A stretch of 44,619 nt of DNA from Spirogloea muscicola (taxonomy: Eukaryota; Streptophyta; Zygnematophyceae; Spirogloeales; Spirogloeaceae): assembly GCA_009602725.1 (NCBI GenBank), contig WELB01000120.1:59060-103678 (forward strand). The letters run 5' to 3'. A model generated the notes under the pieces. The model was not told the origin of the DNA. It saw only the letters and a list, made by a program, of their open reading frames with translations, and did not search any database. Both the position numbers and the translations under genes were made by a program. Shown piece by piece: positions 12,576-44,619 of the stretch; positions within the stretch are counted from its first letter, which is position 1, and each line of letters starts with the position of its first letter.

Positions 12576-12825
12576 GTGCTCGCCCATTGAGGATAGGGGC
12601 TGGATAAGAGAAATTGCTCGCCCATTGAGGATAGGGGCTGGAAAAGCCAGCCCAAAAAAGAATGAACAGAGCACGAGAAGGGGGCCAGGGGAAGCGCTAA
12701 GAGAAACAAGCACATAAAGATACAAAGGAGTTACGAATCACTCAGTAACCCCTGCTAAGCAGCCGCAGGTCGGAGATGCTAGGCTCCTGGAAGTGGGTCC
12801 CCTGGCCAGAGCCAGAAAAGCCAGC
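12576..12825 (-). mobile_element. Short family A retrotransposon 3' fragment
   Basis: Read on the minus strand, it starts CTGGCTCTGGCCAGGGGACC, encodes the end of the family A protein (EPSISDLRLLSRGY then stop), and runs through the 3'UTR to the GGGCTGG hairpin and the CAATGGGCGAGC terminus. The terminal segment is duplicated (two hairpin entries near 12595 and 12640). It interrupts the 1.1 kb repeat unit. Confidence 0.8.
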
Positions 12826-12849
12826 CCCTAAAAGAGAGAGGCCACTTCG

Positions 12850-13062
12850 GCCAATTGTTTTGGGCTCCTTCAGACCTTGTCCATTCCTTTGGCACCTGTT
12901 GTAGCTCTTTGGATTTTGTCCATTCTTTTTTGGCTGGCCTCTGCCCCTCTCTTCTATGGGCGAGCTCATCTTCTGCCAGCCCCTCTCTTCTATGGGCGAG
13001 CTCATCCTTCTTTGGGCTGGCCTTTTCCAGCCACCAGTCAATCTAGCCGCGCTTCCTGTTTG
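12850..13062 (+). mobile_element. Family C tail with embedded family B-like tails
   Basis: CTCCTTCAGACCTTGTCC begins a family C 3'UTR that ends at about 13062 with GGGCTGGCCTTTTCCAGCC and CAGTCAATCTAGCCGCG. Between lie two near-tandem pieces ending CCCCTCTCTTCTATGGGCGAG, the terminus typical of another family. This looks like tail-upon-tail insertion or template switching. Confidence 0.65.
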
Positions 13063-13945
13063 GAGAGGCTAACCAAGGCCGCAGAGGCCGGCAGCAGAGG
13101 AGAACATCGGGCCTAATGGGACTTGCAGCATGTCGCCTTCCCGTCTCCTTCGTGGCGAAAGGCTGCCGGCAGCACCCTGCGCGACCAGTGCCTCCGCCAA
13201 CGCTTCTGCCCCGGCGCCTTGATTGCGCTGCCGCTGCCGCCGTGCCCGGGAAGACTGGCGGCCAGGGAGCTTCGGGAGCTCGCCGCCGTCGTTGTGCCAG
13301 TCACTGCCCCTCTGGACCTTGTTCCCCCCCCAAGGGCCTGCCAGCCGACCTGCGCTTGCCCTCGGGCTGTCAGACACCAGCTGGGGGCTTCATCCTCCTC
13401 GGCGCCCCCATAGGCTCCCCAGCCTTTGTATGGAGCAGCTAGCTCCAGGTACGACTGCTGGAGCACCTCCGGCCGGCGGACCGCCTCCACGCACTGCAAG
13501 ACATGCAGCTGGCGACCGTTAAGCTGACCAGGTGCATTGCCTGGCGTCCGCACTACCTGGCCCGCGTCCTCCCTCACTCCCCGGCGGTGAATGCGGCGTA
13601 CGCGGCTTTTGACTCTGGCATTTTGGAAAGCGCTGCCACTCTCCTGCAACACCCCGGCTTCCTCACCACACCAGCCGCGTTGCTCCAGGCTAGCCTGCCT
13701 GTTAGTCGCGGTGGTCTGGGCTGCCGCCCAGTCGCCCGCGCCTGCGAGGCCGCTACTTGGGCAGCTGGGCCCAGGTCGCCGCACCCATCAACCGGCGGTT
13801 CCAAGCTCACGGCATCCGCACCTTGGAGCGGGTGATAGCTGAAGTGGAGAGCGGCTCGTTGCCCTTCCAGGCTGCTCTCCGCGCTGCCAACGACGCGCTC
13901 CTGGTGGCCCATGTTGAGCTGGGCTATTCGTTAGTGCCGTATTAG

Positions 13946-14585
13946 GACTAACTGAATGCCCAGGACCCAGAGTCTCACCATCACTCGGTTGGGGCTCAGG
14001 CCGTGAAGAAGCTTGAGGCTCAGGCGATGAGGACGCGGTGCTCTTGAATGGAGCGCCGCGCTCCTTCCTCGCCTTCTTGCCCACGGCAAAGACAGCCTTC
14101 TTGCCCATGGCGGTGATGGCGGCAGGGTCCGGCAGGAAGCAGGCCGGCAGCAGCTCAAGGCAGGTGGCGTGGGCGCTGGCAAGCAAGGAGGAGCGGTGGG
14201 CAAAAGGAGGACGGTGGCTCCTGTTAGAGTGAGCAAGCTTGAGCTCACTCGACCCCCTTTTGCCTACATAGAAAGAATGCAGAATCACATGGGCACACTG
14301 GGTCCCGGCGGGTCTGCACACCGGGGGCCCAAGGAGGGCCGGCTGCAGAGCCGGCCCGAGGTGTCCGTTAAGCTAGTCGGGCAGGGGCCTGCTGCAGAGC
14401 TGGCCCTAGGTGTCCGTTAAGCTGATGTGTCCACAGGTGTGAGGCACATACTCTCACGTGTGATCTGTCTACGTGTCACCCTGATGATCCGGGCAAGCCA
14501 CCTCTGGAAGCGAGAGGTGCTTCCCTAAGTGGGACACTTAAAATAGTATGGAGAATAACGAAAGGAGCTAATGCCTATATTCTAA
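13946..14585. mobile_element. Insertion of unknown class inside family B element
   Basis: About 640 bases interrupt the family B frame between residues homologous to SLRSAHQELLAAHTDL and TADLRVQAHFAAVV of family A. Inside are two copies of an AGGTGTCCGTTAAGCT block (about 14360 and 14407). The minus strand carries a short open frame starting MGKKAVFAVGKKARKERG near 14116. Flanks show imperfect similarity (TAGTGCCGTATTA and TAATGCCTATATT), possibly a decayed target duplication. The class cannot be determined. Confidence 0.45.
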
Positions 14586-14701
14586 CAGCCCACCCCGACA
14601 TGTCGAAGCAGGTCGTTCCGTTCATCTACCTCGCACATACCCCCGACCTGCGGGCCCAAGCCCGCCACACTGCGCTTGTGGACAAAGCGGCCTATGACCA
14701 G

Positions 14702-14905
14702 GGGACCCACTTCCAGGACCCTAGCCTCTCTGATTTGCGGCTGCTTAGCAGGGGTTACTGAGTAATTTGTAGCTGCTTTCTTTCTTTGTGTGCTTTGGTT
14801 TCTTAGCGCTTCCTCTGGCTTCCTCTGGCCCCCTTCTCGTTCTTTGTTCATTCTTTTTTGGGCTGGCTTGTCCAGCCCCTATCCTCAATGGGCGAGCCCT
14901 TTCTT
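14702..14905 (+). mobile_element. Short family A insertion with target-site duplication
   Basis: This 204-base copy starts GGGACCCACTTCCAGGACC, encodes SLSDLRLLSRGY and a stop, and ends with the 3'UTR hairpin and CAATGGGCGAGCCCTTTCTT. It is flanked by direct repeats CTATGACCAG at 14692-14701 and 14906-14915. Removing the insert and one repeat restores the family B frame across KAAYDQVVELL, which colinear family A supports (NKAAYTTAMLQL). Confidence 0.9.
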
Positions 14906-15960
14906 CTATGACCAGGTGGTGGAGCTCCTTCCGCTGCACGACATCCGAGGGCGCGCCCAGATCCTCTCTGCCTCCTCCCCGGGTGCGGCGGCGTGGCTAT
15001 CAGCACTCCCCATCTACACGGCGCTGACAATTCCAGACGCGGTGTTCAGGACGGCGGCCCACCGGCTCCTTGGCCTCCTCCCTCCATGCCTCGTCGGGGT
15101 CCATTAGTGCGAGTGCGGTGCCCACCACGATGACCCTGCGGCGCTGGCGGCCCACATGCTCCGCTGCGCGTACGGGGGCGAGCGGACAGGTTCACACGGC
15201 CTCCTGCGAGACGCCATGCAGGGTGTGTTCCTGGAGGCCGGCTACAAGGTGGCAGTGGAAAACTCGACGATCATGCCCATCCTGCGGGCGCTGACGGACA
15301 GCTTCACACCCGCTGCGCGGACCTCGTTACCATCCCGCCCGTTGGAGGTCCGCGTATCATCGCTGATGTGGTGACTGCAGATTGCGTTGATTCGGCCGAA
15401 CCCGCGAAGTCGGCGACGCTCGTCGGGCACGCGGTCGCTTTGGCGGCTCGGAGTAAGGAGCGCAAGTACTCTGACCACCCTCCAGGCGATGCCTTCGCGG
15501 CACTGGCCATTGACGTACACGGGGCCTTTGGCAGTGGCTGGTTGGATCTCCTCCAGCGGCTTGCCCGGGAGGCCATCGAGCGGCGGCAGGGTTCGCCAGG
15601 CTTCAATGCTGCGGGCTCCCTCGCGCAGGTCTTTCGGATGAGGCTGGCCGTCTCGCTACAGCGCTCTTTGGCTCATGCGGTCCACACGCGCGCTGGCCGT
15701 GCTATGGCTGCTGCTTCCGGGTCTCGGCAGAGTGCTGCTTCGAGTTACTCTAATCTGCTGTTGCTCACACGTGGATACTGAGCATCCATCTGCATCTCCC
15801 TCTGCACCATCTCGCGCCTTGTAGTGTAGTCCCTTTTTGGCACTTCTTTCTTTGGCTTTGGACACTGTCCATTCTTTTTGGGTTGGCTTTGCCAGCCCCT
15901 CTTCTCTATGGGACGAGTTCTTCTTCTTGTTCCATCCCTTCGCCATTTTTTGGCTACAGC

Positions 15961-16300
15961 CTCTGGCTCTGGCCAGGGGGAGACGTGCTCGCCCATAGAG
16001 AAGAGGTGCTGGCAAAGCCAGCCCAAAAGAAATGGACCATGTCCAAAGCCAAAGAAAGGTAGAAAGAGGTGCCGAAAGAAGAAGTGCTCGCCCATAGAGA
16101 AAAAGTGTTGGCAAAGCCAGCCCAAAAAAATGGACAATGGATTGAAAAAGGACGACTCTACCAAACACGACAGCGCACTAGGGAAGCTCAGTAGAAAAAA
16201 AAGGGCCCAGTACCCGCGAGTGAGCAACATCAGCCAGGGGACCCGCTACTCGGAGACTAGTTTCTTCATTCTGCGGCTGCTCAACAGGGAATAATGAGTG
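15961..16300. mobile_element. Two family B tails (-) and a family F C-terminus (+)
   Basis: After a short CTCTGGCTCTGGCCAGGGG junction (15961-15980) come two minus-strand tails, GCTCGCCCATAGAGAAG with hairpins near 16010 and 16105. Then a plus-strand fragment, CAGCCAGGGGACCCGCTAC, encodes an end resembling ILRLLNRE and a stop near 16293. Confidence 0.65.
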
Positions 16301-16439
16301 CCTAGTGGCCACTTGATTTCTCTCACTCTCTGACTATACGACGCTTCCAGTAGAGGGCGGTAAGAGAAGTGGCTCTCCCAACAGGGGCAAGGGCTGTGAA
16401 AAGCCAGCCCTCTCTCTCTCTCTTGGCCATTCTAGCGTG

Positions 16440-17060
16440 TCCCGCAAGCCATCATCGCATGCTATAGGATGCGGCTATCATTGAGTCTGCAGCGCTCCCA
16501 GGCACTCGCGTTCACCAGCGTGCTGGTCGTGCACTAGCCCAGGCTAGTGGCTTCCGTGGTGGGTTTTGGCTCCTCAATATAGTTTGTCGGATATGCATGT
16601 GCTCACTCGAGGATATTTAGTGTCCCCCTTAGCCAGCTCATTACTCGGTTAACAGGACATTTAATGGCTAGAATTGGCCTCTTTCAATTTCATGCGCACC
16701 GCGCGCCTTCTCTCTCGCTACAGGTCACTCGCTACTTGAGTCGCCGTGTGCGTCAGCGCTTTTGTGGCCCCTTCGGACTTCGTTCATTCTTTTATTTGGG
16801 CTAGCCACTCACAGCCATCAACCTCCACTGAAAGAGTCTTTCTCTCTGTGGAGAGGCGACTCTTCATGAGTCTTCCTTTCTTTGTGCCTAATTTCTCTGA
16901 CCTGCGGCTGCTCCGGCTGCTCACTAGGGGATATTGAGCACCCAGTGACCACTTGAGTCGCTGTGCAAGTTTAATGCTTTTCTGGCCCCTTCGAAACTTA
17001 TTGCCTTTTCTGGGCTGGCCAACCACAGCCATCGCCCTCTTCGTCAAGGCCCTACCGGCT
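16440..17060 (+). mobile_element. Retrotransposon C-termini and tails of several families
   Basis: SLQRSQALAFTSVLVVH (16480-16545) matches the C-terminal region SLQRSMARALHLRAGRA of family A. SDMHVLTRGY follows near 16590-16620. A family E block starts at about 16660. FSDLRLLRLLTRGY and a stop end at about 16937, followed by a tail with GGGCTGGCCAACCACAGCC near 17014. All pieces are fragments. Confidence 0.6.
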
Positions 17061-17129
17061 TTTCCGGCCCTCCTTGCCCCGTCCGCCAGCCCTCCTGCCT
17101 CGGCAGAGTGCCGCTTTTCCTGCTTCGAG

Positions 17130-17293
17130 TTACTCTGATCTGCAGTTGCTCACACGTGGATACTGAGCATCCATCTGCATCTCCCTCTGCACCGTCTCGC
17201 GCTTTGTAGTGTAGTCCTTTTTCGGCACCTTTCTTTGGCTTTGAACATTGTCCATTCTTTTTGGGTTGGCTTTGCCAGACCCTCTTCTCTATG
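17130..17293 (+). mobile_element. Family B 3' end
   Basis: It encodes SSYSDLQLLTRGY and a stop at 17164-17166. The 3'UTR is nearly the same as the family B tail at 15780-15910 (CATCTGCATCTCCCTCTGCA) and ends with GGGTTGGCTTTGCCAGACC. Confidence 0.8.
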
Positions 17294-17499
17294 CTGCTCT
17301 ATTCCCCTAGTGGCTTCAGAAGTGGACGAAGGACAGGTCGCCAAGGCCGTCATCAACATTTCCGGCCCTCCTTCCCCCCTCCGCCATCCCTCCTGCCACT
17401 GCTGCTGCCCTCCTCCTCGAGCGGCTTCAGAAGTAGATGAAGGACAGATTGTCAAGGCCCTCACCGGCCTTTCCGGCCCTCCTTCGAAGAAAACCACTT

Positions 17500-18089
17500 C
17501 GCTTGAAGAAGGGCTCGCCCATTGAGGATAGAGGCTGGCCATTGTGGCGCACGGGGCGATGGGCGCTCGGTGGCTCGAGCTGCTCAATCAGCTCTCACGT
17601 CACGCCATTGTCCGCCGCTTCCATGGAGAGCCGGTGGACTTCCATGCAGCCACGTCCCTAGGGCAGGTGTACCGCATGTGCTTGGCCGTCTCGCTGCAGA
17701 GCTTAATGGCCCGCGCGCTGCACCTGCCTGCCGGCAGAGCCCTCGCTGCTGCCGCTTGCTCTGGCCAGGGGACCCGCTTCCAGGAACCCAGTCTCTCTGA
17801 CCTGAGGCTGCTTAGCAGGGGTTACTGAGTCCTTCGTAGCCTTCGCGGTTCACTTACGCGTAGGCCGAGCTTTGGCGACGGCCTCCGGCCCTCGTCAGGG
17901 CGACGTCTTTCCGCCGGCTAGCTACTCAGAGTTGCATCTCCTGACTAGAGGTAACTGAGCTTTCCCTGGCTGATGTCTCAGTTCTAGTCCTTCGCACTCC
18001 GGCTCCTTCAGACCTTGTCCATTCCTGTGGGCTGGCCTTTCCCAGCCACCAGTCAATCTGGCCGCGCTTTCTTCGTGGCTGCTTCGTTC
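17500..18089 (+). mobile_element. Family A C-terminal fragment plus family C tail, inside satellite
   Basis: A reversed tail end (GGGCTCGCCCATTGAGG, 17509-17525) is followed by the family A C-terminal region, GARWLELLNQLSRHAIVRR to SLSDLRLLSRGY with the stop ending at 17828. Next comes a family C end, SELHLLTRGN and stop near 17955, with its hairpin at about 18030. The compound block interrupts the dimeric satellite, so it arrived after the satellite expanded. Confidence 0.75.
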
Positions 18090-18649
18090 TCCCTCCCCCC
18101 CTCCGCCATCCCTGCTGCCACTGCTGCTGCCCTACTCCCCTAGTAGCTTCAAAAGTGGACGAAGGACAGGTCGCCAAGGCCATCATCAAGATTTCCGGGC
18201 CTCCTTCCCCCCTCCGCCATCCTCCTGCCACTGCTGCTGCCCTCCTCGAGCGGCTCCAGAAGTGGATGAAGGACAGGTCGTCAAGGCCCTCACCGGCTTT
18301 CCCGGCCCTCCTTTCCCCCTCCGCCATCCCTCCTGCCACTGCTGCTGCCCTACTCCCCTAGTGTCTCCAGAGGTGGATGAGGACAGGTCGCCAAGGCCGT
18401 CATAAACACTTCCGGCCCTCCTTCCCCCCTCCACCGTGCTTCCTGCCACTGCTGCTGCCCTCCTCCTTGAGCGGCTCCAGAAGTTGATAAAGGTTGGGTC
18501 ATTAAGGCCCTCATTGGCATTTCCGGCCCTCATTACCACCCCTGTCATCCCTCCTGCCACTGATGCTGCCCCACTCCTTCCGCAGCTCCAGCAGTGGTCG
18601 TTTGACGGGTCGACAAGGCCCCCTTATCTTTGCCCCTTGTTTTCGTCTG

Positions 18650-18800
18650 ATAAATGGATTGGCTTATATTGGCCACGCTTTCACTTCAAGCGCACCGCGC
18701 GCCTTTCTCTCTTCTTTGGGCTTGCTTTTTTCCAGCCCTCGCCCCCTTCCAACAGTTGCCTCGTCGTTTGACATTGCAGCTGCTGACCAAGAATATTTGA
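18650..18800 (+). mobile_element. Family E tail
   Basis: ATTGGCTTATATTGGCCACG and AGCGCACCGCGCGCC are followed by a GGGCTTGCTTTTTTCCAGCCC hairpin and CCTTCCAACAG. An LQLLTK-like end with a stop lies at about 18776-18798. Confidence 0.55.
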
Positions 18801-18959
18801 GCAAGCACTCTTAGTCGTCACGAAGAGTACTTCTGTGCGCCTTCCAGCCCTCTTGGGCGCTCTCGTTCGTTTCGCTTCCTCTGAACAAGGTCAAAAGGGC
18901 CGAAGGCGCTAAATCCACGCTATGCAACTTGCTACAGCAAATGGGAGCATATTAATCCT

Positions 18960-19580
18960 GAGTCAGCAGCGGCAAGTAGGAGTAAGCTGTAGCCGGGGGC
19001 TTTCATCAGGGTCACCCTGATCAAACCCAGTAGTCGCAGCAAGAGCGCGGCCTGCCCACAAGTGCGCTGCACGAGCCTGGAAACATTGAAAGAAGATGGA
19101 GAGCCGCATGCGGAACACCTGGGCAAGCGACCCGGCGGAGCTTAAGCCGGGCAGCCCAAAGCCACTGACTGCCAAAGGCCGTGCACGTACACATCGCCAG
19201 TGCCACAAACCCATTGCCGGCAGGGTGGTCCCGTAGTGGTTTCCACGATTTTCCGGGCTCCTGTGACCCTTGTCCATCACTTTGTGGGCTGGTATTTCTC
19301 TTTTCTCTTTGTGGGCTAGCTCTTCCCAGCCTCACCCTTTCCCTTTTGGAAGAGTATGCACTTTCAAAAGAATGAAGAAGAAAGGAAAACGCTTCTAGAG
19401 GGCCATAGCTGTGAGTAGCCAGCCCAGAAAAAGGAATCAAGAGCTCTTCTAATGTAAGCAAATGGATGTGAAAGAGTGAGCTCCTCCAAAGGGGGCAAGG
19501 CTGTGAAAGGCCAGCCCGAAAAGAATGGACAAGGACCGAAGGGGCTGGACAGGGTGAACTATACAAGTACGAAGTATATT
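18960..19580 (-). pseudogene. Retrotransposon endonuclease C-terminal fragment and tails
   Basis: On the minus strand, GNGFVALAMCTCTAFGSQWL (about 19180-19260) matches DAFAALAIDVHGAFGSGWL of family B, and AGSLAQVFRMRLSIFFQCFQ (about 19080-19140) matches the downstream block. Frames are broken. At 19300-19560 further tails with GCCAGCCC and GGGCTAGC half-hairpins occur in both orientations. Confidence 0.65.
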
Positions 19581-19599
19581 CACTTAGTTATTCCTAGCA

Positions 19600-21275: not shown

Positions 21276-21394
21276 AGAAGAGGGCTGGCAAAGCCAGCCT
21301 AAAATGAATGGACAATGTCCAAAGCCAAAAGAAAGAAGGAAGCGCGGCCAGATTGACTGGTGGCTGGGAAAGGCCAGCCCAAAGGAATGGACAA
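21276..21394 (-). mobile_element. Two minus-strand retrotransposon tails
   Basis: One tail has a GGGCTGGCAAAGCCAGCC hairpin at about 21284. The second has the family C terminus CGCGGCCAGATTGACTGG and GGCTGGGAAAGGCCAGCCC near 21365. They abut the end of the 1.1 kb repeat unit. Confidence 0.7.
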
Positions 21395-22305
21395 AGAAGA
21401 AAGTGCTCGCCCATTGAGAATAGGGGCTGGAACAACCAGCCCGAAAAAGAATAACAGAGTACGAGAAGGGGGCCAGGGGAAGCGCTAAGTAACAGAAACA
21501 AAGCTGCTACGAGACACTCAGTAACCCCTGCTAAGCAGCCGCAGATCAGAGATGCTGGGCTCCTGGAAGTGGGTCCCCTGGCCAGAGCCAGAGGCAGCAG
21601 CGAGGGCTCTGCCGGCACGAAGGTGCAGCGCCCGGGCCATGGACCTCTGCAGCGAGACGGCCAGGCGCATTCGATACACTTGCGCCAGCGACCCGGCTGC
21701 AGGGAAGTCAACCGGCTCCCCATGGAAGCGCCGGGCGATGGTGTGGCGGGCGAGCTGGGTGAGCAGCTCGAGCCACCGAGCGCCCAGCGCCCCATGTGTG
21801 TCGATGGCCAACGGGAAGAACTCGTCTTCCCGCGGATGATCCGCGTACTTCAGCTCTTTGGCCCGAGCAGCGCAGGCGACCGCATACCCAGCCGTGGTGG
21901 CACATTTGGCTGGGTGTGAGCGGTCATAGGCATCAGTAGTCACCACGTCCAGGAGAAGACGTGGCCCGCCGGCCTGTCGGGTGGCCACCAGGTCTACACG
22001 CCTGGCATGGAGACCGTCGGCCCTGTGCTGGATTGGCATGATTCCGGAGTGCTCTGCTGCCACGGAGAAACCAGCCTCCAACAGGATGCCATGCATTACG
22101 TCGCGGAGGCGGTCGTGGGCCGCTGTCCGCTCTCCGCCGTGGGAACAGCGCAGAACATGAGCAGCCAGCTCTCCAGGCTCGGTCCCGCGCTCGCCACACT
22201 CACATTGACGCACACCCTGGAGACATGGCGGCAGTAGGCCCAGGAGCCGGTGGACGGCACTTCGGAATACCTCGTCCGGGAGGGTGAGGGCGCCGTCAAG
22301 GTCTG
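21395..22305 (-). mobile_element. Family A copy with intact endonuclease region
   Basis: Read on the minus strand, the fragment starts with LTLPDEVFRSAVHRLLGLLP (about 22290), then the knuckle CECGERGTEPGELAAHVLRC, the restriction-like endonuclease core (RRVDLVATRQAGGPRLLLDV with DVVTTDAYDRS), and ends SISDLRLLSRGY with the stop at 21518-21520. The 231-residue frame 22213-21518 is unbroken. The 3'UTR and hairpin run to about 21395. It is nearly identical to 44195-44619. Confidence 0.88.
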
Positions 22306-22390
22306 AAGGAGCCAGAGTGCGAAGGACTAGGACTAAGACATCAGCCAGGGAGGGGGAACGCTCAGTGACCTCTAGTCAGGGAGAAGAGCT
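22306..22390 (-). mobile_element. Family C 3' fragment
   Basis: GAAGGAGCCAGAGTGCGAAG and CTCAGTGACCTCTAGTCAGG are the reverse complement of the family C C-terminus and early 3'UTR. It abuts the 5' truncation of the family A copy. Confidence 0.65.
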
Positions 22391-25866: not shown

Positions 25867-25868
25867 TA

Positions 25869-27984: not shown

Positions 27985-28665
27985 AAGCTCTTCACTCCGG
28001 CGTCATGCCGCTCCAGGAAAGGGCCGACGGTCTCCACGCCCGTCGCGCAGACCTGGTGGCCACCCCACAGGCCGGCGGGCCACGTCTTCTCCTGGAGGTG
28101 GTGACCACCGACGCATACGACCGCTCACACCCAGCCCAATGTGCCACCAAGGTTGGGTATGCATCGCCTGCGCCGCTCGGGCTAAAGAGCTCAAGTACGC
28201 CGACCATCCGCGGGAAGACAAGTTCTTCCCGTTGGCAATTGACTCCATGGGGCGCTGGGCGCTCGGTGGCTCGAGCTGCTCACCCAGCTCGCCGGCCACG
28301 CCATCGCCCGTCGCTTCCATGAGGAGCCGGTGGACTTTCCTGCAGCCGGGCCCGCTAGCTCAGGTGTACCGGATGCGCTTGGCCATCTCGCTGCAGCGGT
28401 CGATGGCCCCGCGCTGCACCTGCGGGCCGGCAGAGCCCTCGCTGCTGCCTCTGCCTCTGGCTGGTGATAGCTTCCCGGCAGCTAGTCTGTCGGATCTGAG
28501 GCTCCTCACTCGTACTTATTGAGTGATCCATCCTCCCCCTGTTTTACCATTGCATCCTCAGGCCCCTTTGTAGCTGCTCACCGCTCTTAGGCCCCTCTGA
28601 ACCTTTGTGAATTCTTTTTGGGCTGGCTTTTCGCAGCCCTTGCCCCCATTGGGAGTGCCACTTCT
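27985..28665 (+). pseudogene. Family A endonuclease copy, frameshifted
   Basis: It starts near HSGVMPLQERADGLHARRAD (about 27995) and carries the endonuclease core, with EVVTTDAYDRS where other copies have DVVTTDAYDRS. A frameshift near 28165 and others near 28250 and 28345 break it. It ends SDLRLLTRTY with the stop at 28519-28521, and a tail with GGGCTGGCTTTTCGCAGCCC lies at about 28619. Confidence 0.8.
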
Positions 28666-28872
28666 TCTGGCTCTGGCCAGGGGACCCACTTCAAGGAGCC
28701 TAGCATCCCTGATCTGCGGCTGCTGAGCAGGGTTACTGAGTGATTCGTAGCTGCTTTGTTTCCTTGTGTGCTTGTTTATCTTAGCGCTTCCCCTGGCCCC
28801 CTTCTCGTACTTTGTTCATTCTTTTTTGGGCTGGCTTTCCCAGCCCCTATCCTCAATGGCCGAGCACTTTCT
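28666..28872 (+). mobile_element. Short family A unit
   Basis: It starts CTGGCTCTGGCCAGGGGACC directly after the CTTCTT end of the preceding tail and runs through ISDLRLLSRV, where a missing base shifts the frame before the stop. The 3'UTR, the hairpin GGGCTGGCTTTCCCAGCCCC and a CACTTTCTTCTT end follow. Confidence 0.8.
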
Positions 28873-29115
28873 TCTTTCTCCGAAGGGAGAAGGAAGAAAG
28901 ATCAACGCGATCAACTGCTGCCAGCTGCAATCGGCAGAAGGGCTCCGTTCCTGGCATCTAGTGTTCATGCATCGAGTAGTGACCTTTATGTTTTGACCCG
29001 TGGTTATTGAGCGGGTCAATCTGCTGTAGGTTATGTAGATTCTTAGATGTGCTTGCCTTTGTACCTGGCCATTTGGCCTACATTTCTTTCTAATACACGA
29101 TCTCTTCTCCACGGG
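28873..29115 (+). mobile_element. Family G C-terminal fragment
   Basis: SSDLYVLTRGY and a stop (28975-29010) are followed by a 3'UTR with GTGCTTGCCTTTGTACCTGG. It is the plus-strand counterpart of the copy at 27860-27955. Confidence 0.65.
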
Positions 29116-29129: not shown

Positions 29130-29480
29130 AGAAGAAGAAGGCTCGCCCATAAAGAAAGAGGGGCTGGCAAAGAAGAAGAGGGGCTGGCAAAGCCAGCCCT
29201 TGCCCGCTGGGCAAGGGCTGGGGGAAAAGAAGAAATGCTCGCCCATTGAGGACAGAAAGAAAGTGCCCGCCCATTGAGAACAGGGGCTGGCAAAGCCAAC
29301 CCAAAAAGAATGGACAATGTTCAAAGCCACAGAAAAAGAAGCGCCGAAAAAAGAAGGGGGCCAGGGGAAGCGCTAAGAAAAACAAGCACAAAAATAAACG
29401 AAGCAGCTACGAATCACTCAGTAACCCCCGCTCGATTGTTGCAAATGCACGATACCCCTTGCTGAGCAGCCGCCCGGGAA
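29130..29480 (-). mobile_element. Stacked family A/B tails
   Basis: Three or more hairpin termini (GGCTCGCCCATAAAGAAAG, GCTCGCCCATTGAGGACAG, GCCCGCCCATTGAGAACAG) lie within 150 bases, followed by the family A 3'UTR in reverse and CACTCAGTAACCCCCGCTC at about 29415. Close stacking points to repeated insertion into earlier tails. Confidence 0.7.
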
Positions 29481-36157: not shown

Positions 36158-37609
36158 GCCCATTGACACAATACAGCACACAACATGTCCGTTGGCACTG
36201 CGCGCGCCGCGGCCAAGTTCGCGTGGGCGCAGCGGTTTCGCCCTCGCTGCCTTCCATGCCGCCACCACGCCACCTCCGCCGCAGCCCCCCCTTCTTCCGC
36301 CGTCACCACCCTCGCCTGCGAAGCCCCAGCGCGCACCGTGGTCCACCTACCCGCGGGACTTCGCAACTCCCCATGGCGTCTCCGTGCATCGGCGACACTG
36401 CAAGGGGCATGCCAGCCCCACCGGCACTCCGCCCGCAGCGGCCGTCGCAGCTTGCAGCCCCATCGTACGGGCTCTGGCATCTGCTCAGGCGGAGCATAGC
36501 ACTGAGCATTCCACGGAGGCCACTACTTTATCGCCTCCCGCCCGAGAGAAGTGTCGGGCACAAGCGTTATCGCCTCCACCCCTGAGATGCGAGGGGACTC
36601 ACGAGGTGACCACGCTCCTCCATCCTCAGGGTACCATGCCCCATGTGCTCGGCCCTGATGTTTCTGAGTGTGCTTCTCCGCCGACAGAGGTGCAGCAGCC
36701 GCTATCGCCCGCTGAGCCGTTGTCACCACAGCTGCCGTCGGTCCCCCCGCCCCCACCTCCCCCGACGCCCCGTTCCCAGCCATCCGCCATCCCGCCTCTC
36801 GAGCCGCCCAGCCTTCCACAGTCGGCGCCATCGACGCCGCCCCCGTCTCCGCCGCCTCCACCCCCGCCGAGCGAGCCGGCTCCACCGCCGTCGCCCCCAC
36901 CTCTCTCACTCGACCCGCTGCTGTGCCAGCTTTGCTAGAGGACCTTCACCACGCGGTCCGGCCAGTCCAACCACCAGCAATCGTGCACGTGCAACAACCA
37001 CCGTGCGGAGCAGGCGCCGAGCGCAGCAGCGGCGGGTGGTCGTCGGGGCAGACCAGGCAGGCCTCCCGCGCCGTCCCCGCCCACGCCTCACCACTGGCAG
37101 TGGCTGGCAGGCCTCGACCTAGCTGCAATTCACTGCCAGGCGGCCCTGCCGCTCCTTAGCCACGTTCCGCGCTGGGCGCGCCCACACCTCCGCCGCGCGC
37201 TCCGCCCGGTGACGCAGCAGATCGTCACGGACCACAGGGACGAGGCGGCGTGGAAGTTGTTCATCCTCTTCCCCCGGCTGTTGCTCGGGCGGGTCTTTCC
37301 CGACAGCCGCAAGCAGGGCCAGCCCCTCCCCTCTTGGAACGCGTCCAGTTGTTCAAGAGCGGGCACTGGGAGGAGCTCCTGGCGAGGCACGACGCAGCCG
37401 TGGCGGCGTCCACGGCCAACCGTGGTGGCCGAGGGGCAACACACGACCGGGCCGCCAGCGTCCGCAGGGCTCTTCGCTACGGCCACGCGGGTGAGCTCTC
37501 CCAGGCTGTGCAGGCCCTGGACGATGCGATGCTGGCGCCAACCAATGCGGCAAACCGGGCGGCTCTGGACTCCCTCCACCCCCCGGCCAGCTTCCCCCTG
37601 CCCCCGTGA

Positions 37610-38900
37610 ATGGCCGCGTTCGCCCAGCCGGAGGAGGTGGTCATGGAAGCTGACGCCCTCAAGAATGCTCTCCAGACCAGCCGTTGCGCAGCCGCGGGCG
37701 GCCCCTCCCGCATGCTAACTGAGCACCTGTGGGAGATCTTCCTCGAGGGTGAGGCGGCAGACTTCGACGCGCTGCTGCAGATCTGCCAGCATATGGCCCG
37801 AGACAATGTGCCGGCCAGCATCTGCGGCGTACTGTGCAGCACGCTGCTCGCCCTCAACAGCGGGGGAGTCAGGCCAAGCAGGGGAGTCAGGCCCATTGCC
37901 ATTGGGGAGGTCCTGTACCGCCTGGTGAGCCGCGTACTCTGGCAGCAGCATGCGGGCCGGCGCAGGTGCACATGGCGCCACACCAGTACGGTGCGGGGCT
38001 GCGGAGTGGGGGCGAGGCCGTCGTCCACGGGGTTCGTGCGACCTTGGACCAGAACCCGGGGTGGCTGGTGCTGGCCGTTGACGTGAAGAATGCCTTCAAC
38101 ACTGTGGAGCGCGCCAGCATTGCGGAGGAGCTCTGGGCATCCTTCTCCTCCCTGGTACCCTTTTTCCGCTTGGAGTACGGTCAGCCCAGCGACCGACAGG
38201 GGGTGATCAAGTGGAGGTCCTGCAATCCCAAGCGGGCACGCGGCAAGGGGACCCCCTCGCCGGCTTCTACTTTGCGCTCGCTCACCACTGGGCTCTGCGG
38301 GCTACCGCGGCAGCACACTCAGCAGTCCTACTCCCCAGCGTTGCGGATGACACCACCATAGTCGGCACTCCGGAAGACGTGGCTGTGGCCTTCGTCACCT
38401 TTGAGCTGCAGCCGGCCACCCTCGGCCTGTCCACCCGGGCGTCGAAGTGCGCGGCTTGGTCTCCCTGCGGCCTCCCACCCACCCTGACGCTGCCCACCGG
38501 ATGCCAGACTCCAGCAGATGGCTTCACCCTGCTGGGGGTCCCCATCGGCGCGCCATCCTTCGTGGAGGGGCAGCTGCAAGCCCGCCTTATGGAGCATCTT
38601 AAGCCTGCGGCTCGGCTTCCCGAGCTGGACGTTATGCAGCTGTCGTTGGCCATGTTGACCAAGGCCATTGGGCAGCGGCCCCAGTACTTGACGAGGGCCA
38701 CTCCGCCGCCCCCAGGGCCGTTGGCGGCATACGTGGATTTTGACGCAGGCATGGTGGCGAGCTTGGCGGCCCTGGTCCGCCACCAGGGTTCCCTCCAGTC
38801 GCCAGCCGCTATCCACCAGGCGGCGCTACCCCTCAGCCACGCTGGTCTCGGCCTGCTCCCGCTCGCCCGTTCTTGCTGGGCTGCATACCTCGGCAGCTGA
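37610..38900 (+). pseudogene. Reverse transcriptase domain of family A
   Basis: Recognisable RT blocks: GVRPIAIGEVLYRLVSRVL (about 37875-37935), motif A LAVDVKNAFNTV with the first catalytic Asp (about 38073-38105), motif B QAGTRQGDPLAGF (about 38225-38260), motif C SVADDTTIVG with the Asp pair (about 38338-38365), then LGVPIGAPSF of the region after motif C (about 38530). Catalytic Asp codons survive, but frame changes near 37955 and 38205 separate motifs A, B and C. A local duplication of GGGGAGTCAGGCC lies at about 37863-37892. Confidence 0.88.
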
Positions 38901-39801
38901 GCGCAGACTGCCGCCTCCGTGGCCCAGCGCTTCATGGTCCACGGCCAGCGTGCACTGGAGCAGGCGGTGGTGGAGGTCGACATGGGCGCGCTGCCATTCT
39001 AGGTGTCGCTTCGCTCCGCCCACCAGGAGCTGCTCGCGGCGCATACGGACCTGGCAGGCCAGGCGGTCTCCTTTGCGCACCTTGCGACACACCGCTGACC
39101 TGCGCGTCCAAGCGCACTTCGCGGCTGTGGTCAACAAGGCCGCCTACACCACTGCCATGCTGCAGCTCCCCGAGGCGGACCTGCGCGGGCGCGCGAGACT
39201 TCAATCGGCCTCCTCCCCGGGGGCAGGGGCGTGGCTTCTGGCCCTCCCCATAAATGACGCCCTCACTCTCCCCGTTGAGGTATTTCGCACTGCCGTCCAC
39301 CGGCTCCTGGGACTGCCGCCTCCATGACTCCAGGGCGTGCGTCAGTGTGCATGCGGCGAGCGAGGGGCCGAGGCTGGGAAGCTGGCTGCTCATGTTCTGC
39401 GCTGCGCCCACGGCAGCGAGCGGACAGCGGCCCACAACGGCCTCCGCGATGCGATGCATGGCACCCTGGTGGAGGCTGGCTTCTCGGTGGCAGCGGAGTA
39501 CTCCGGCGTCATGCCGCTCCAGGAAAGGGCCGACGGTCTCCACGCCCGTCGCGCAGACCTGGTGGCCACCCCACAGGCCGGCGGGCCACGTCTTCTCCTG
39601 GACGTGGTGACCACCGACGCATACGACCGCTCACAACCAGCCCAATGTGCTACCAAGGTTGGTTATGCGGTCGCCTGCGCCGCTCGGGCGAAAGAGCTCA
39701 ATTACGCCGACCATCCGCGGGAAGACGAGTTCTTCCCATTGGCAAATTGACACCCATGGGGTGCTGGGCGCTCGGTGGCTCGAGCTGCTCACCCAGCTCG
39801 C

Positions 39802-40355
39802 CCGCCACACCATCGCCCGTCGCTTCCAAGGGGAGCCGGTAGATTGTCCTGCAGGTGGGTCGCTGGCGCAAGAGTATTGTATGCGCCTGGCCGTCTCGCT
39901 GCAGAGGTCTATGGCCCGCGCGCTGCACCTTCGTGCCGGCAGAGCCCTCGCTGCTGCCTCTGGCTCTGGCCAGGGGACCCGCTTCAAGGAGCCTAGCATC
40001 TCTGATCTGCGGCTGCTTAGCAGGGGTTACTGAGTGGTTCGTAGCTGCTTTATTTCTTTGTGTGCTTGTTTTTCTTAGCCGCCACACCATCGCCCGTCGC
40101 TTCCAAGGGGAGCCGGTAGATTGTCCTGCAGGTGGGTCGCTGGCGCAAGAGTATTGTATGCGCCTGGCCGTCTCGCTGCAGAGGTCTATGGCCCGCGCGC
40201 TGCACCTTCGTGCCGGCAGAGCCCTCGCTGCTGCCTCTGGCTCTGGCCAGGGGACCCGCTTCAAGGAGCCTAGCATCTCTGATCTGCGGCTGCTTAGCAG
40301 GGGTTACTGAGTGGTTCGTAGCTGCTTTATCTCTTTGTGTGCTTGTTTTTCTTAG
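39802..40355 (+). repeat. 277-base tandem duplication of the element's 3' end
   Basis: Bases 39802-40078 and 40079-40355 differ at a single visible position (near 40331). The unit spans the end of the ORF (from RHTIARRFQGEPVD), the stop and the early 3'UTR. It could be a real recent duplication or an assembly product. Confidence 0.9.
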
Positions 40356-40559
40356 CGCTTCCCCTGGCCCCCTTCTCGTACTCTGTTCATCCTGTTGGGC
40401 TGGCTTTCTCGGCCCCTATCCTCAATGGGTCAATGGCCCCCTTCAGACCCTTTTCTGGGCTGATTAGTGACATTCGTGGCCCGTCACTGGGAGATTCATT
40501 CTCATTTCAGCCCTCGCCCCTTCTGAAAAGAGCTTACTCACTTGAAATAAGATAGGAGC

Positions 40560-40850
40560 GCGCGGGAAACAAACAAACAAAAAAAGCTCGCCCATAGAAG
40601 AGAGGGGCTGGCAGAAGCCAGCCAAAAACGAATGGACAAAATCCAAAGAGCTACTGGAGAATCACTCAGTAACCTCTGCTAAGCAGCCGCAGGTCGGAGA
40701 TGCTAGGCTCGTTGAAGTGGGTCCCCTGGCCAGAGCCAGAGGCAGCACCGAGGGCTCTGCGGGCACGAAGGTGCGACGGGCCATAGACCTCTGCAGCGAG
40801 ACGGCCAGGCGCATTCGATACACTTGCGCCAGCGAACAAAAAGCAACTTT
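40560..40850 (-). mobile_element. Family A fragment with family B-like tail
   Basis: A tail GCTCGCCCATAGAAGAGAGG with hairpin GGGCTGGCAGAAGCCAGCC (about 40603) precedes, on the minus strand, the family A C-terminus and the block RMRLAVSLQRSMA near 40790-40830. Confidence 0.75.
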
Positions 40851-41089
40851 AACAAAAAGCCCTCTCAAAGAAGGATCAAGAGGCCAGCCCAGAAAGACTG
40901 CAAGGGAGGCCAAGCCAAGCCTGTACACTGTCGTGGCCCCTCTTCTGTACAGAGGTACAGAGAGGGGCTAGGGTAACAGAAGGAAAAGCACGATGGAAGG
41001 GGGACTCCAATATCGCAGAGTGATACTTGCATTGGTGACAGACTAACCTGGGGAGCCGGAGCACTACAGTCCAAGCCAGTGGCCTGGCT

Positions 41090-41760
41090 TAGCATGCAAT
41101 AGAAGCAGCACAAGAAGGGAGAAACAGCTCTTCTTATGTAAGGCATTGGCTGTAAGAGGCCAGCCCAAATGAAATGAGCTCTTTCAAAGGGGGCGAGGGT
41201 TGTGAAAAGCGAGCCCAGAAAGAGTGAGAGTGGACAAGGTCCAAAGGGCTGAAGAAGTGCTAAAATCACACAGCTATGCAAGTGACTACACTTGGAGCTT
41301 AGTAAACCCGAGTTAGCAGACGCAAGTTGGAGTCAAATGCAGCTGGAGAAGAGCCAACCCTACAAAATCCACTAGCAGCATAAAAGTGGCGCTTGCCTGC
41401 AAGTGCACTGCATGAGCCTGGGAATGCAGTGCGCACTAGAAGTGTGCGACAACAGAAGCAGCTCTTTCAAAGAGATAAGAGCAGCTATCAAAGGGAAGAC
41501 CTATGCTAAGGTGGGATAAGGTGAGACACAAAGAACAATGTAAAAGCTCCTTTAAGGTGGCGACGGGAGTTAATGGCCAGCCCACAGTGACAAATGACAA
41601 GGGCAAGAAGCTTTCCCTGGCACTTTCCTGCAGTATTTCTCTAGCACAAGTCTTGCCTTACTGTGCTGGTCGTGCCCTGGCTGCCTCAGGCATAGGCGGG
41701 GCAACTCCTTTTCGTGACACTCTTGTGGCTGCAATAACCTTAAAGATTACTTAAGTGCTC
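41090..41760. mobile_element. Old retrotransposon tails and C-terminal debris
   Basis: Minus-strand hairpin halves occur near 41155 (AGAGGCCAGCCC) and 41205. SNLRLLTRVY and a stop lie on the minus strand near 41305-41340. At 41640-41690 the plus strand has CAGRALAAS, like AGRALAAAS of the other families. Confidence 0.5.
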
Positions 41761-42248
41761 ATTTGGTTGCTCGTCTTGCTAATGTCTTGACCTTAGGTGC
41801 TTTGCACTATTCTGGCTATTCCCCTTGTCATTCCTCACTCCCACCTAAAAGGAAAAGCAGAGTGGTCTTGCTTAGATTCTTGGCAATGATGCATGCTTAA
41901 TCATTATTGGGCGAAGGAGCTGCTATGGAACTGTTAACCAACTTTGAGCTTGGATCCATTACCTGGTATAGTGGTTGAGCGCTCCAACAAAAGCCACCTT
42001 GACGAGCAAGGCTTGAAGTACCAACTGGAAGTCTATGGAAAATAACGATTGCAAAATCCTGCAGTATTCACACAACCTTTGCAAGGCACGTACTGCGAGG
42101 CGTTTGCGACATATGGTGCAGCTTCCTCTCAGCAAGAGCGTATGCATAGTTGAGTATTTATCACCAGTGTACAGGCTTGTGCTAGCCAAAAGTGATCCCG
42201 TATTTCCCTACTTTAAGAGGCTGAGCTCTTTGGACAATGTCAATCCAA
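41761..42248. other. Intergenic, nothing recognised
   Basis: No conserved frame, repeat or RNA gene is recognised between the retroelement debris and the parvulin 3' end. Confidence 0.5.
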
Positions 42249-42253
42249 TTACA
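42249..42253 (-). terminator. TGTAA polyadenylation signal of the parvulin gene
   Basis: The minus strand reads TGTAA about 100 bases after the stop codon at 42353. Confidence 0.55.
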
Positions 42254-42352
42254 TTCTAGGAGTCTGCAAACAAATAATGACTAACTTCACTAGTCCTCCA
42301 TGAGCTCGACACTATCGCAGTGTAGTATCAGAGCTGAAATACATCTCAGTGT

Positions 42353-43490
42353 CTAATTTTTCCGCCCTTCAACAAGGATGATGTGATAGCCATGCCTGCA
42401 TCATACGACAGCGATCATCACAAGCAGGCAAAAGTGATACAAAGTCATTCCACGAGATGATTCAGAAAAACGCTTCTTCTCAGAAAAGTCGACTAAGTCT
42501 GCATACTCCGACACACAATGCTGTCAAACTTGCCATGCTCACTTAGCATGCTGCAAGTTTTCCAGCTTCAGCCCCTGCAGTAGACGACTCACGTTGACTT
42601 GAATGGCGTGCTTGTGACACCAATAGGTGTTGCAAAAGCCACATCTTGAAAAGGGCCGGCCATCTTGCCGCGAGGAAACCACCCGAGGTCCCCACCCTCT
42701 TTACCTGAAGGACACTCTGAATACTCCGCAGCCAGCTGAAAGTAAGGCCAAGCACCCATCGTCTTACCAACTGACCGAAGTCTGACAACCAAGTGCATAA
42801 GCGAGGATCATTTGGGTTTGCAGTCTACATTCGCTTCAGCTCGCGCATGCTCTCAACTTCAGAAGGTAGCTGTCTGCAAGCTCTGGCTGCCATGAGACCG
42901 TGACTGACCTCCCCAAATTTGGATGGCGGCACCTTGTCGCCCTGGTCGAGGAAGCCCTCCTGCAGCTTCTTGTACGCCTCGTTGACTTTGCCCTGCTTCT
43001 CGCAGAGGATGTGCCTGGCTGCAGCACGGACATCAACCACAGCAGTGTCTTTGCAATGACGGACTGCCTGCTGGTGCATAACAGCTCTGTGCAACAAATC
43101 AGCACGCGACAGCTCGGAAACATCGGCAATGAGAGCAAAGCTATCCAGGCGCTGCACCTTTACAAAGTACATATCACTGCCGGTCGACTGCAAGTCGAGG
43201 TCTGAGCCAGTGCTTTGAGTCAAGTTTCAGCATTACGAATAGCCCATGCACTCTCTCGCCGACAATATGATTTCATATGGAGCTCAGAATGTACGCCCAG
43301 CATTGACGGCCAGCACATTGTCCAACCACCACTGCAGGCGCTCGCGACAGTGGCGTGCGCTCGGACCTTTCACGAAGGTGCAGGTCCCGAGGTCCCCGCC
43401 CTTGCCGCCGCCGCCGCCGCCGCCCTTGTCCGCCGCTCCTCCAGATTTGCCTTTGGCTTTCCCGGCGCCGTCCTTGGCCTTGGGCGCCAT
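42353..43490 (-). CDS. PIN4: Parvulin-type peptidyl-prolyl isomerase, PIN4/Par14 type
   Basis: Parvulins isomerise peptidyl-prolyl bonds; the Par14/PIN4 type has a short basic Gly-rich N-terminus instead of a WW domain and works in the nucleus, in ribosome biogenesis and in mitochondria in other eukaryotes. Minus-strand exons: 43490-43367, 43018-42909, 42735-42593, 42395-42353; all phases match and give 139 residues, close to the usual 130. The N-terminus (MAPKAKDGAGKAKGKSGG and a Gly run) is followed by the rotamase domain: ARHILCEKQGKVNEAYKKLQ, then LAAEYSECPSGKEGGDLGWF, RGKMAGPFQDVAFATPIG and HGYHIILVEGRKN at the end. The two His residues (RHIL, HGYHI) and Cys of the active-site region are present. 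Exon 1 is much richer in GC than exon 4. Confidence 0.93.
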
Positions 43491-43799
43491 GAGCGGCAGC
43501 CACCCGCCGCGGCTCCCGGGCGTCGGGGCGTACCCAAGCTGCAGGTCCGCTGCTGTGGCTGGCTCCGGGCGTGCTATGACTGACTTCTACAGCCGCTCTT
43601 CTGATATCAGCAGCTGCATTCTTACTTTCTATGGCGACATTGGCGAGACGCAGGCGGGGCTCGAGGACCCACGAGCGCCGCCCACAGGCGCCAGTCCGGG
43701 ACGGGCTGGCGTGTGTCGAGGGCGGCGGAGCGTCGGAGATGGCGCGCGGTGTATAATGGTTAAGCTCTTGCAGGAGACCTCATAATGAAACGAGGAGAG

Positions 43800-44180
43800 A
43801 GACTCTTCCACTGGTGGGCAATGGCTGTGGTTGGCCAGCCCAGAAAAAGGATGAACAAGAAGAGAGAAGCGCGGCCAGATTGACTGAGGAGAGAAGGCGC
43901 GCTGGGCGCATGAAATCGAATGGAGGCCATTTCAAGCCGATAAAATGTTTAGGCAGAGTCTAGGGCAAACTAAACAGGGCTACATAATACGGAGACCGAG
44001 ACTAAGGATGAGCTCGCCCAGAGAAAAGAGAAGTGCTCGCCCATTGAGAATAGGGGCTGGAAAACTAGCCCGAAAAAGAATAAACAGAGTACGAGAAGGG
44101 GGCCAGGGGAAGCGCTAAGAAACAGAAACAAAGCAGCTACGAGACACTCAGTAACCTCTGCTAAGCAGCCGCAAGTCGGA
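43800..44180 (-). mobile_element. Minus-strand tails, families C, E and A
   Basis: A hairpin GGCTGTGGTTGGCCAGCC lies at about 43822. The family C terminus CGCGGCCAGATTGACTG follows at 43870, and a reversed family E block (GCGCATGAAATCGAATGG) at about 43905. A family A 3'UTR (44036-44178) breaks off inside CCGCAAGTCGGA, where another tail begins. Confidence 0.7.
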
Positions 44181-44194
44181 AAAGAGGGGCTGGC

Positions 44195-44619
44195 AGAAGA
44201 AATGCTCGCCCATTGAGAATAGGGGCTGGAACAACCAGCCCGAAAAGGAATGAACAGAGTACGAGAAGGGGGCCAGGGGAAGCGCTAAGAAACAGAAACA
44301 AAGCAGCTACGAGACACTCAGTAACCCCTGCTAAGCAGCCGCAGATCAGAGATGCTGGGCTCCTGGAAGTGGGTCCCCTGGCCAGAGCCAGAGGCAGCGG
44401 GCTCTGCCGGCACGAAGGTGCAGCGCCCGGGCCATGGACCTCTGCAGCGAGACGGCCAGGCGCATTCGATACACTTGCGCCAGCGACCCGGCTGCAGGGA
44501 AGTCAACCGGCTCCCCATGGAGCGCCGGGCGATGGTGTGGCGGGCGAGCTGGGTGAGCAGCTCGAGCCACCGAGCGCCCAGCGCCCCATGTGTGTCGATG
44601 GCCAACGGGAAGAACTCGT
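44195..44619 (-). mobile_element. Family A copy running off the window edge
   Basis: The 3'UTR with hairpin, the C-terminus SISDLRLLSRGY and the upstream C-terminal block (RARCLWLWP in another frame) are nearly identical to 21395-21838, apart from small deletions (near 44398 and 44520). The copy continues beyond base 44619. Confidence 0.88.

What the first reader, a model, noticed from the sequence alone, without database searches (positions are those of the whole stretch)
12640..44250. One 3'-terminal hairpin shared by many diverged retrotransposon families
Across about 40 tails on both strands the 3'UTR ends in the same layout: CATTCTTTTTGGGCTGGC, a 3-6 base loop, GCCAGCCC, a family-specific 15-25 bases (CTATCCTCAATGGGCGAGC, TCTCTATGGGCGAG, ACCAGTCAATCTGGCCGCG or ATCGCCC), then often a pyrimidine-rich CTT end. 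Outside the hairpin the 3'UTRs of families A, B, C, E and G have diverged beyond easy alignment. Stem variants include paired changes (for example GGCTGGCC/GGCCAGCC against GGGCTGG/CCAGCCC). For non-LTR elements the 3' RNA structure can be what the reverse transcriptase recognises in target-primed reverse transcription, so this hairpin is a candidate common recognition element that would let families and short copies use each other's enzyme.
Basis: partly seen in the sequence, partly recalled or inferred. Interest (0 to 1): 0.78.

Follow-up and report, generated by a model that had tools for sequence, protein, structure and literature searches.

The report
Shared 3'-end hairpin of retrotransposon families
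Several related families of a 'copy-and-paste' DNA parasite in a green photosynthetic organism end in the same small RNA hairpin a fixed distance from the tip, probably the handle by which their copying enzyme recognises its RNA; such handles are known from other organisms, and here one family carries another family's tail.

Summary
The tails are real: 42 in the window, 17,096 genome-wide against 7 for the reversed control. They are 3' ends of related non-LTR retrotransposons: of 51 copies with a readable ORF end, 48 carry the tail 66-208 nt further on. Insertions end 22-30 nt past the hairpin in a pyrimidine-rich, mostly CTTC-like end (41 of 42 copy pairs; one further group is ragged); candidate target-site duplications are enriched and mostly start there. 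The claimed compensatory changes are absent: none at the five core stem pairs in 185 distinct tails, nor in the 71 not chosen by a stem pattern. The core stem is nearly invariant, the loop differs by family, and a single-stranded box upstream is nearly as conserved. Tail type follows the protein clade in 39 of 40 typed copies. The exception is a chimera, A-clade body with B-clade tail, at seven distinct sites. Best reading: a stringent-type recognition module for target-primed reverse transcription, inherited within one R2-like clade and occasionally exchanged. New member of a known kind; enzyme sharing is plausible, not shown.

The parts
28790..28874 (+). A-type tail; hairpin GGGCTGG-CTTTC-CCAGCCC starts at 28828; MFE -13.3, z -3.4
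12608..12692 (-). A-type tail
14823..14906 (+). A-type tail
21397..21480 (-). A-type tail; hairpin 77 nt after the end of the ORF at 21518-22375
21339..21396 (-). ACC-type tail, 5'-truncated, directly abutting the CTT end of the A tail at 21397-21480 (tail-on-tail)
21278..21326 (-). B-type tail (partial), third in the same-strand series
15849..15917 (+). B-type tail, GGGTTGGC-TTT-GCCAGCCC (wobble pair); hairpin 100 nt after a B-clade ORF end
17992..18072 (+). ACC-type tail
4549..4628 (+). ACC-type tail with a 13-nt candidate target-site duplication (GGCCATGGTTTTG)
28582..28668 (+). CTT-type tail; hairpin 99 nt after an ORF end
29256..29334 (-). B-type tail inside a dense tail array (29138-29334)
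44197..44280 (-). A-type tail
41118..41176 (-). tail of another type (AATGCCTTACATAAG...)
21518..22375 (-). C-terminal part of an A-clade retrotransposon ORF: CCHC-like knuckle plus candidate restriction-like endonuclease domain
38082..38900 (+). reverse transcriptase part of a degraded copy (weak RVT_1, E 0.0055, below cut-off; 143 genome matches)
39328..40030 (+). C-terminal endonuclease part of the same degraded copy; 39802-40078 is repeated as 40079-40355
40361..40429 (+). A-type tail of that copy

Best explanation
The hairpin is part of a 3'-terminal recognition module (box TGTYCATTC-T-run, hairpin GGCTG/CAGCC, spacer, CTTC-like end) carried by families of one clade of non-LTR retrotransposons that encode a reverse transcriptase and, probably, an R2-like C-terminal restriction-like endonuclease. 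The element's own enzyme most likely binds this module on the RNA, the RNA's CUUC-like end is placed on a nicked target that sometimes also has CTTC, and reverse transcription starts 22-30 nt past the hairpin and runs towards the 5' end, usually stopping early. Families share the module mainly by descent: the core stem is common to all and the loop is specific to each. Recognition is not so narrow that exchange is impossible, since a chimera with a foreign tail has amplified. Shown here: homology, nearly fixed 3' end, enrichment of target-site duplications, short 3'-anchored copies, predicted hairpin stability, chimera. Inferred: binding of the hairpin by the enzyme, pairing of the RNA end with the target, and which enzyme moved the chimera.
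For: 17,096 genome matches vs 7 control. 48 of 51 ORF ends carry the tail. The two stem arms are 97% conserved on average against 71% elsewhere in the tail, and are exactly complementary. Mean hairpin folding z -3.0, all 47 tails below -1, stretches before and after near 0. 3' ends 22-30 nt after the hairpin in 41 of 42 copy pairs. Shared repeats >=8 nt at both ends in 28 of 144 copies against 5.3% in shuffled pairs. The 3'UTR outside the module is at background similarity (p-distance 0.60; shuffled tails 0.62), whereas the box reaches 80-91% identity between clades. R2 proteins are the top two structural hits of the C-terminal domain (from a poor model).
Against: No covariation in the core stem. 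The whole tail is less conserved between clades than the ORF (p-distance 0.43 vs 0.33). The upstream box is nearly as conserved as the hairpin, so the hairpin need not be the key contact. Fixed 3' ends would also follow if the hairpin sets where the RNA is cut. Sequence similarity of the enzyme to solved R2 proteins is very weak (E 0.73); the folded model has mean pLDDT 45, no structural hit passes E 0.001, and Tdp2 nucleases follow R2 closely (9.4e-3).
Confidence: 0.68

Rival explanations
1. The hairpin is a host-read 3'-end formation signal (transcript cleavage or termination, as the histone mRNA stem-loop works), and the fixed insertion end simply reflects where the RNA ends. The enzyme would read the end or the CUUC tail, not the hairpin.
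For: No poly(A) end in the copies compared: ends are CTTC-like at a nearly fixed place. Core stem invariant in sequence without covariation, as expected for a protein-read stem-loop.
Against: No Rfam family, the histone 3' stem-loop included, reaches its gathering score in the window. The end lies 22-30 nt past the stem, much farther than the few nt recalled for histone mRNA. The loop differs by family.
Confidence: 0.17
2. Shared ancestry only: the families descend from one element, and hairpin and box persist without a role of the folded form. The self-complementarity is incidental to a conserved linear protein-binding sequence.
For: No compensatory change at any core pair. The neighbouring single-stranded box is nearly as conserved. 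Tail type follows the protein tree.
Against: The rest of the 3'UTR has drifted to background similarity, so these positions look selected. Two separate conserved blocks that are exactly complementary are unlikely by chance. Two changes in the core, C-G to U-G in B tails and G-C to G-U in L099, keep pairing.
Confidence: 0.12
3. Common currency: the shared hairpin makes all families and solo tails substrates of each other's enzymes.
For: A-body/B-tail chimera at seven distinct sites. Tails sit close to other tails far more often than density predicts (28 of 118 same-strand within 60 nt), although that clustering fits shared target preference as well.
Against: Tail type and protein clade agree in 39 of 40 typed copies. 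Loops are family-specific, and in zebrafish L2 elements the loop decides and swapped stem-loops fail (PMC4176376, section 13). The short copies fit 5' truncation.
Confidence: 0.25

Closest known systems
Stringent-type LINE 3' tails: UnaL2, ZfL2-1, ZfL2-2 (L2 clade)
   Same: Short 3' stem-loop near the end of the RNA. In ZfL2 the stem-loop is essential, and recognition is described as stem-general and loop-specific (PMC4176376, abstract and sections 13, 18 read); here the core stem is common and the loop differs between families.
   Different: Here an R2-like C-terminal endonuclease is indicated rather than an endonuclease upstream of the RT, the end is CTTC-like and not a TGTAA repeat (UnaL2: PMC3747384, passage), the core stem is nearly invariant in sequence, and no binding test exists.
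Monocot L1 (ME1) LINEs and ZmSINE2/3 with a conserved 3' hairpin
   Same: Many LINEs of one lineage keep a conserved 3' end with a hairpin while the rest diverges (PMC3747384, section 16 read; it also names a conserved CGAG 3' of the stem, and A tails and several B tails here have GGGCGAGC).
   Different: There the stem varies with compensatory changes and the last 45 nt are far more conserved than the whole element (0.144 vs 0.570). Here the core stem hardly varies and the tail as a whole is less conserved than the ORF.
RLE-encoding non-LTR retrotransposons (CRE, R2, R4, NeSL, HERO; PMC4640811, passages read)
   Same: Reverse transcriptase followed by a C-terminal CCHC-like knuckle and candidate endonuclease domain; R2 is the top structural hit (poor model). 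HERO contains non-specific and microsatellite-targeting families.
   Different: The flanks of the copies compared differ from each other, so no fixed gene target was seen. Clade assignment was not possible with the databases at hand.
Zepp / Zepp-like LINEs of green algae
   Same: Nested insertion into existing copies gives arrays made mostly of 3' ends (PMC8226300, passages read), like the tail-on-tail arrays here.
   Different: Zepp is L1-clade with (A)n ends (PMC3747384, table passage). The tails here are dispersed over the genome, end in CTTC and belong to R2-like proteins.

Membership tests
Non-LTR retrotransposon (LINE) | ORF with reverse transcriptase upstream of the 3' end | tested here: met
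   RVT_1 above cut-off in 2 of 4 proteins, below it with E 7.7e-06 and 8.5e-05 in the other 2; 612-aa C-terminal parts align at 64-89% identity to the first; 48 of 51 ORF ends followed by the tail
Non-LTR retrotransposon (LINE) | 5'-truncated copies with a fixed 3' end and target-site duplications | tested here: met
   77 copies of >=90% identity, median 83 nt; ends 22-30 nt after the hairpin in 41 of 42 pairs; repeats >=8 nt in 28 of 144 vs 5.3%
Stringent-type 3'-tail LINE | Conserved 3'-terminal stem-loop shared within the clade | tested here: met
Stringent-type 3'-tail LINE | Stem supported by compensatory changes | tested here: not met
0 of 185 at the five core pairs, 0 of 71 in the part not chosen by a stem pattern; U-A 3 observed, 4.9 expected.
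Stringent-type 3'-tail LINE | Enzyme requires or binds the stem-loop | not testable with these tools
   needs biochemistry
RLE-encoding (R2-like) LINE | C-terminal CCHC knuckle and PD-(D/E)XK endonuclease | tested here: inconclusive
   CxCG...H...C and RRxDLVA...DVVT conserved in all 10 proteins (motif names recalled); R2 top Foldseek hits E 3.3e-3 and 4.7e-3 on a model with mean pLDDT 45
SINE/LINE pair | Non-autonomous element with an unrelated body and the same tail | not tested
   no separate body was sought; solo tails fit truncation

The most novel reading that the evidence does not exclude
Body and tail are separable modules in this clade: by template switching a family can take over another family's 3' module and amplify with it. 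The genome would then hold a pool of interchangeable tails read by more than one enzyme, and insertion into existing CTTC tails would feed new tail-tail junctions. The A-body/B-tail chimera at seven sites is the visible case.
Probability: 0.3. Interest if true: 0.65.

Novelty: new member of a known kind. Interest (0 to 1): 0.45.

Why it matters
It adds an apparently R2-like clade in a green-lineage phototroph to the LINEs with a compact, shared 3' hairpin, with four families that still have open frames and could be tested side by side for stem versus loop recognition. The natural tail-swap chimera offers a ready experiment on whether an enzyme can use another family's tail; the direct tests that I read are of two zebrafish L2 elements (PMC4176376).

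Tried and rejected
Covariation scan: the 40 highest-ranked pairs of 272 tails (Neff 99) contain no pair of the hairpin stem in register; some other pairs rank high, mostly non-canonical, as subfamily structure would give. That sample was picked with a stem-conditioned pattern. The profile search did not demand pairing, but the regions L001-L080 had themselves been fetched around pattern matches, so I recounted the window and the opposite strand alone: 71 tails, again no double change at the core pairs.

Second hairpin (CC-N5-GG after CAGCC) and a third upstream (GGAC-NNN-GTCC): suggestive by eye in single families (CCAG/CTGG in ACC, CTTA/TAAG in another type, GGAC/GTCC in B), but the flanking stretches fold no better than shuffles (mean z +0.18 and +0.21). 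Rejected as general features.

Rfam: no family in the window at gathering thresholds. PDB by sequence: none for two single proteins at E<=1; with a profile R2 at E 0.73-1.2, followed by YuiC at 1.9-2.4.

Three-part mosaic of the L083 locus (L081-like, then L109-like, then B tail): contiguity of the fetched stretches was checked, but the first switch lies inside a stretch identical in both families, and locus L142 has the same 3' flank with a different upstream part. It may be an assembly join, so it is not used. The tail junction itself recurs at independent sites and is kept.

Clade labels put L091, L121 and L124 wrongly into A (their C-termini end like A's), so some rows there are wrong; I use it only for the window tails at 15849 and 40361 and for one unfollowed case. 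In the typing rule, A is the default class, and the A clade as a whole has low support (0.12), while B, ACC and CTT have 0.98-0.99.

Literature: searches listed no paper that I recognised as describing this hairpin, but I saw only titles and abstract starts, and only part of the longer lists (12 of 475, 10 of 76). It is no proof that it is unpublished.
Full report
What was checked. The window lies in a 153-Mb assembly of 471 contigs. Several of these exons occur with near-equal scores on two contigs, so the assembly may hold two haplotypes and genome counts may be inflated.

The tails are real and far beyond chance. GGGCTGGC occurs 43 times in the window against 5.28 expected. The pattern YYYYKGGSYTGG-N2-10-CAGCC occurs 17,096 times in the genome and 7 times when read backwards. 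One A-type 38-mer alone is found 5,189 times with up to 3 mismatches, against 0 for the control. A profile made from 47 ORF-anchored tails finds 42 tails in the window at E<=0.01 (15 on +, 27 on -), 39 of them overlapping the stated range and 36 covering both hairpin arms.

They are retrotransposon 3' ends. A reverse-transcriptase fragment of the window matches 143 places at 56-100% identity, more than twenty of them in open frames of over 1,100 aa; only 142 of 1,921 candidates were scored. I fetched 60 such loci, chosen by hand for spread of identity and long frames. In 51 the C-terminal end of the ORF could be found, and 48 of these 51 have the hairpin tail 66-208 nt after it. The misses are L106 and L124, where other sequence follows, and L132, which stops at the locus edge; nine loci had no such end. 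A few of the 48 are decayed at the stop (L082, L105, L126). The proteins are 64-89% identical to the first over the last 612 aa, with an ADD reverse-transcriptase motif, a CCHC-like knuckle and an RRxDLVA...DVVT motif (motif names recalled). RVT_1 exceeds its cut-off in 2 of 4. R2 proteins head a list of six PDB sequence matches (E 0.73-1.2; the other three are YuiC) and are the two best structural matches of the C-terminal domain (E 3.3e-3 and 4.7e-3, followed by Tdp2 at 9.4e-3), but the model is poor (mean pLDDT 45). I therefore call the clade R2-like and leave its place open.

Nearly fixed 3' end. Among copies of the same subfamily in different places, sequence agreement stops 22-30 nt after CAGCC in 41 of 42 pairs from ten groups; the other pair showed no break within the 44 nt compared. 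An eleventh group (B-095) mixes subfamilies and gives 4-26. The ends are pyrimidine-rich and mostly CTTC-like. Repeats of 8 nt or more at both ends of a copy occur in 28 of 144 copies against 5.3% in shuffled pairs. Of the 18 repeats of 9 nt or more, 13 start 23-40 nt after the hairpin, against 39 of 198 in the shuffled pairs; L003 and L004 are one copy seen twice, and the cases at 14-18 nt look like repeats between tails (the 39 of 198 are my sum of its printed histogram). In several clear cases (L044, L049, L059) the repeated target itself begins with CTTC, so the element's end and the target overlap. This is what target-primed reverse transcription with pairing of the RNA end to the target would leave; the pairing is inferred.

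Structure. The hairpin folds better than dinucleotide shuffles (mean z -3.0; all 47 ORF-anchored tails below -1), while the stretches before and after it do not (+0.21 and +0.18); whole tails have mean z -1.5 (four window examples: z -3.4, -3.3, -2.4, -1.4). But there is no covariation. Of 230 profile hits, 207 have both arms without gaps, 185 of them distinct. In these the five core pairs are paired in 177-183 and never change on both sides. The outer pair is paired in 104 of 182 (77 right-only and 6 left-only changes; 4 double changes, of which 3 pair) and the inner pair in 105 of 185 (88 right-only). Because the L001-L080 regions were fetched around pattern matches, I recounted the window and the opposite strand alone: 71 tails, core pairs paired in 66-71, no double change; the outer pair holds the same 4 double changes. 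Invariance neither proves nor disproves the helix. The support is that two separate blocks, 97% conserved on average against 71% elsewhere, are exactly complementary.

What is shared and what is not. Between the four clades the ORF differs at 33% of bases and the tail at 43%. The short 3'UTR stretches upstream of the tail (18-66 nt) are at 60%, close to shuffled tails (62%). Within the tail the box TGTYCATTC-T-run reaches 80-91% identity, nearly as high as the stem arms. This differs from monocot L1 elements, where the last 45 nt are far more conserved than the element (0.144 vs 0.570; PMC3747384, section 16). Loops differ by family, with typical lengths of 5 in A, 3 in B, 6 in ACC and 8 in CTT (sequences; structures). 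That is the pattern expected if stem reading is general and loop reading specific, as shown for zebrafish L2 elements (PMC4176376, sections 13 and 18), but it is a parallel, not a test.

Exchange. In a tree of 42 C-terminal domains, 39 of 40 tail-typed tips have the tail of their clade; two have no tail. A is the default class of the typing rule, and support is 0.99 for B, 0.99 for ACC, 0.98 for CTT but only 0.12 for A. The exception, L083, has an A-clade C-terminus and 3'UTR start, then from a sharp junction a B tail of about 84 nt: 79 of 82 aligned bases agree with B copy L134, 62 of 77 with its A-clade relative L109 (gaps left out). The junction pattern occurs at 9 places and 0 in the control. 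L083 and L142 share their 3' flank, L146 has lost the hairpin, and the rest have distinct flanks, so seven distinct sites carry the chimeric tail; at L147 it lacks its last stretch. A-clade coding sequence was recognised upstream at 7 of the 9 places (only 22-29 aa at L143 and L144), and not at L141 and L147. The chimera therefore moved after it formed. Whether its own A-type enzyme or a B-type enzyme moved it is not known; either would mean use of a tail by a non-cognate partner. One window tail (40581-40650, -) after an A-like C-terminus of only 35 aa also looks B-like and was not followed.

Tail-on-tail. Of 118 tails with enough downstream sequence, 28 have another tail starting within 60 nt on the same strand (23 of these neighbours at E<0.01, the rest up to 0.85) and 10 on the other. 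From the pattern density, and from 42 profile hits against 12 pattern hits in the window, I estimate 0.4-1.3% by chance per strand. Young copies are very short: median 83 nt, 45 of 77 at most 100 nt (lengths are those of the alignments and may be somewhat low). Insertion into existing CTTC ends, or end-to-end template jumping, would both give this; Zepp elements do the former (PMC8226300, passages read). It may explain much of the crowding in the window.

Verdict. A real, functional-looking 3' module of a known kind in a new clade, with a natural tail swap that makes the sharing idea testable. The covariation claim does not hold, and a shared enzyme is possible but not the default.

Noticed in passing
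window 21278-21480, 12904-13056, 29138-29334; L001-L080: Tails sit in same-strand series, each starting at or near the CTT end of the one before: 28 of 118 tails have a same-strand neighbour within 60 nt, 10 an opposite-strand one.
   Followed up: partly
L083, L141-L148 (contigs C135, C21, C28, C126, C159, C84, C42, C44, C98): A-clade body with a B-clade tail at a sharp junction in the 3'UTR, at seven distinct sites.
   Followed up: partly
L083 with L149, L150 (C135:49300-56400): First part of the ORF mostly 99-100% L081-like, rest 97-100% L109-like; the switch is in an identical stretch and may be an assembly join.
   Followed up: partly
contig places: Light-harvesting exons occur with near-equal scores on two contigs, suggesting two haplotypes in the assembly.
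   Followed up: no
window 40581-40650 (-): B-like tail 44 nt after a 35-aa A-like ORF end, a possible second tail swap.
   Followed up: no
window 17330-18645: Minisatellite-like direct repeats spaced about 107-111 bp next to an ACC-type tail.
   Followed up: no
window 39802-40355: A 277-bp tandem duplication covers the C-terminal end of a retrotransposon ORF and part of its 3'UTR.
   Followed up: no
window 1710-2261: Aldo/keto reductase exon (PF00248, E 2.6e-13), a host gene beside the repeat-rich stretch.
   Followed up: no
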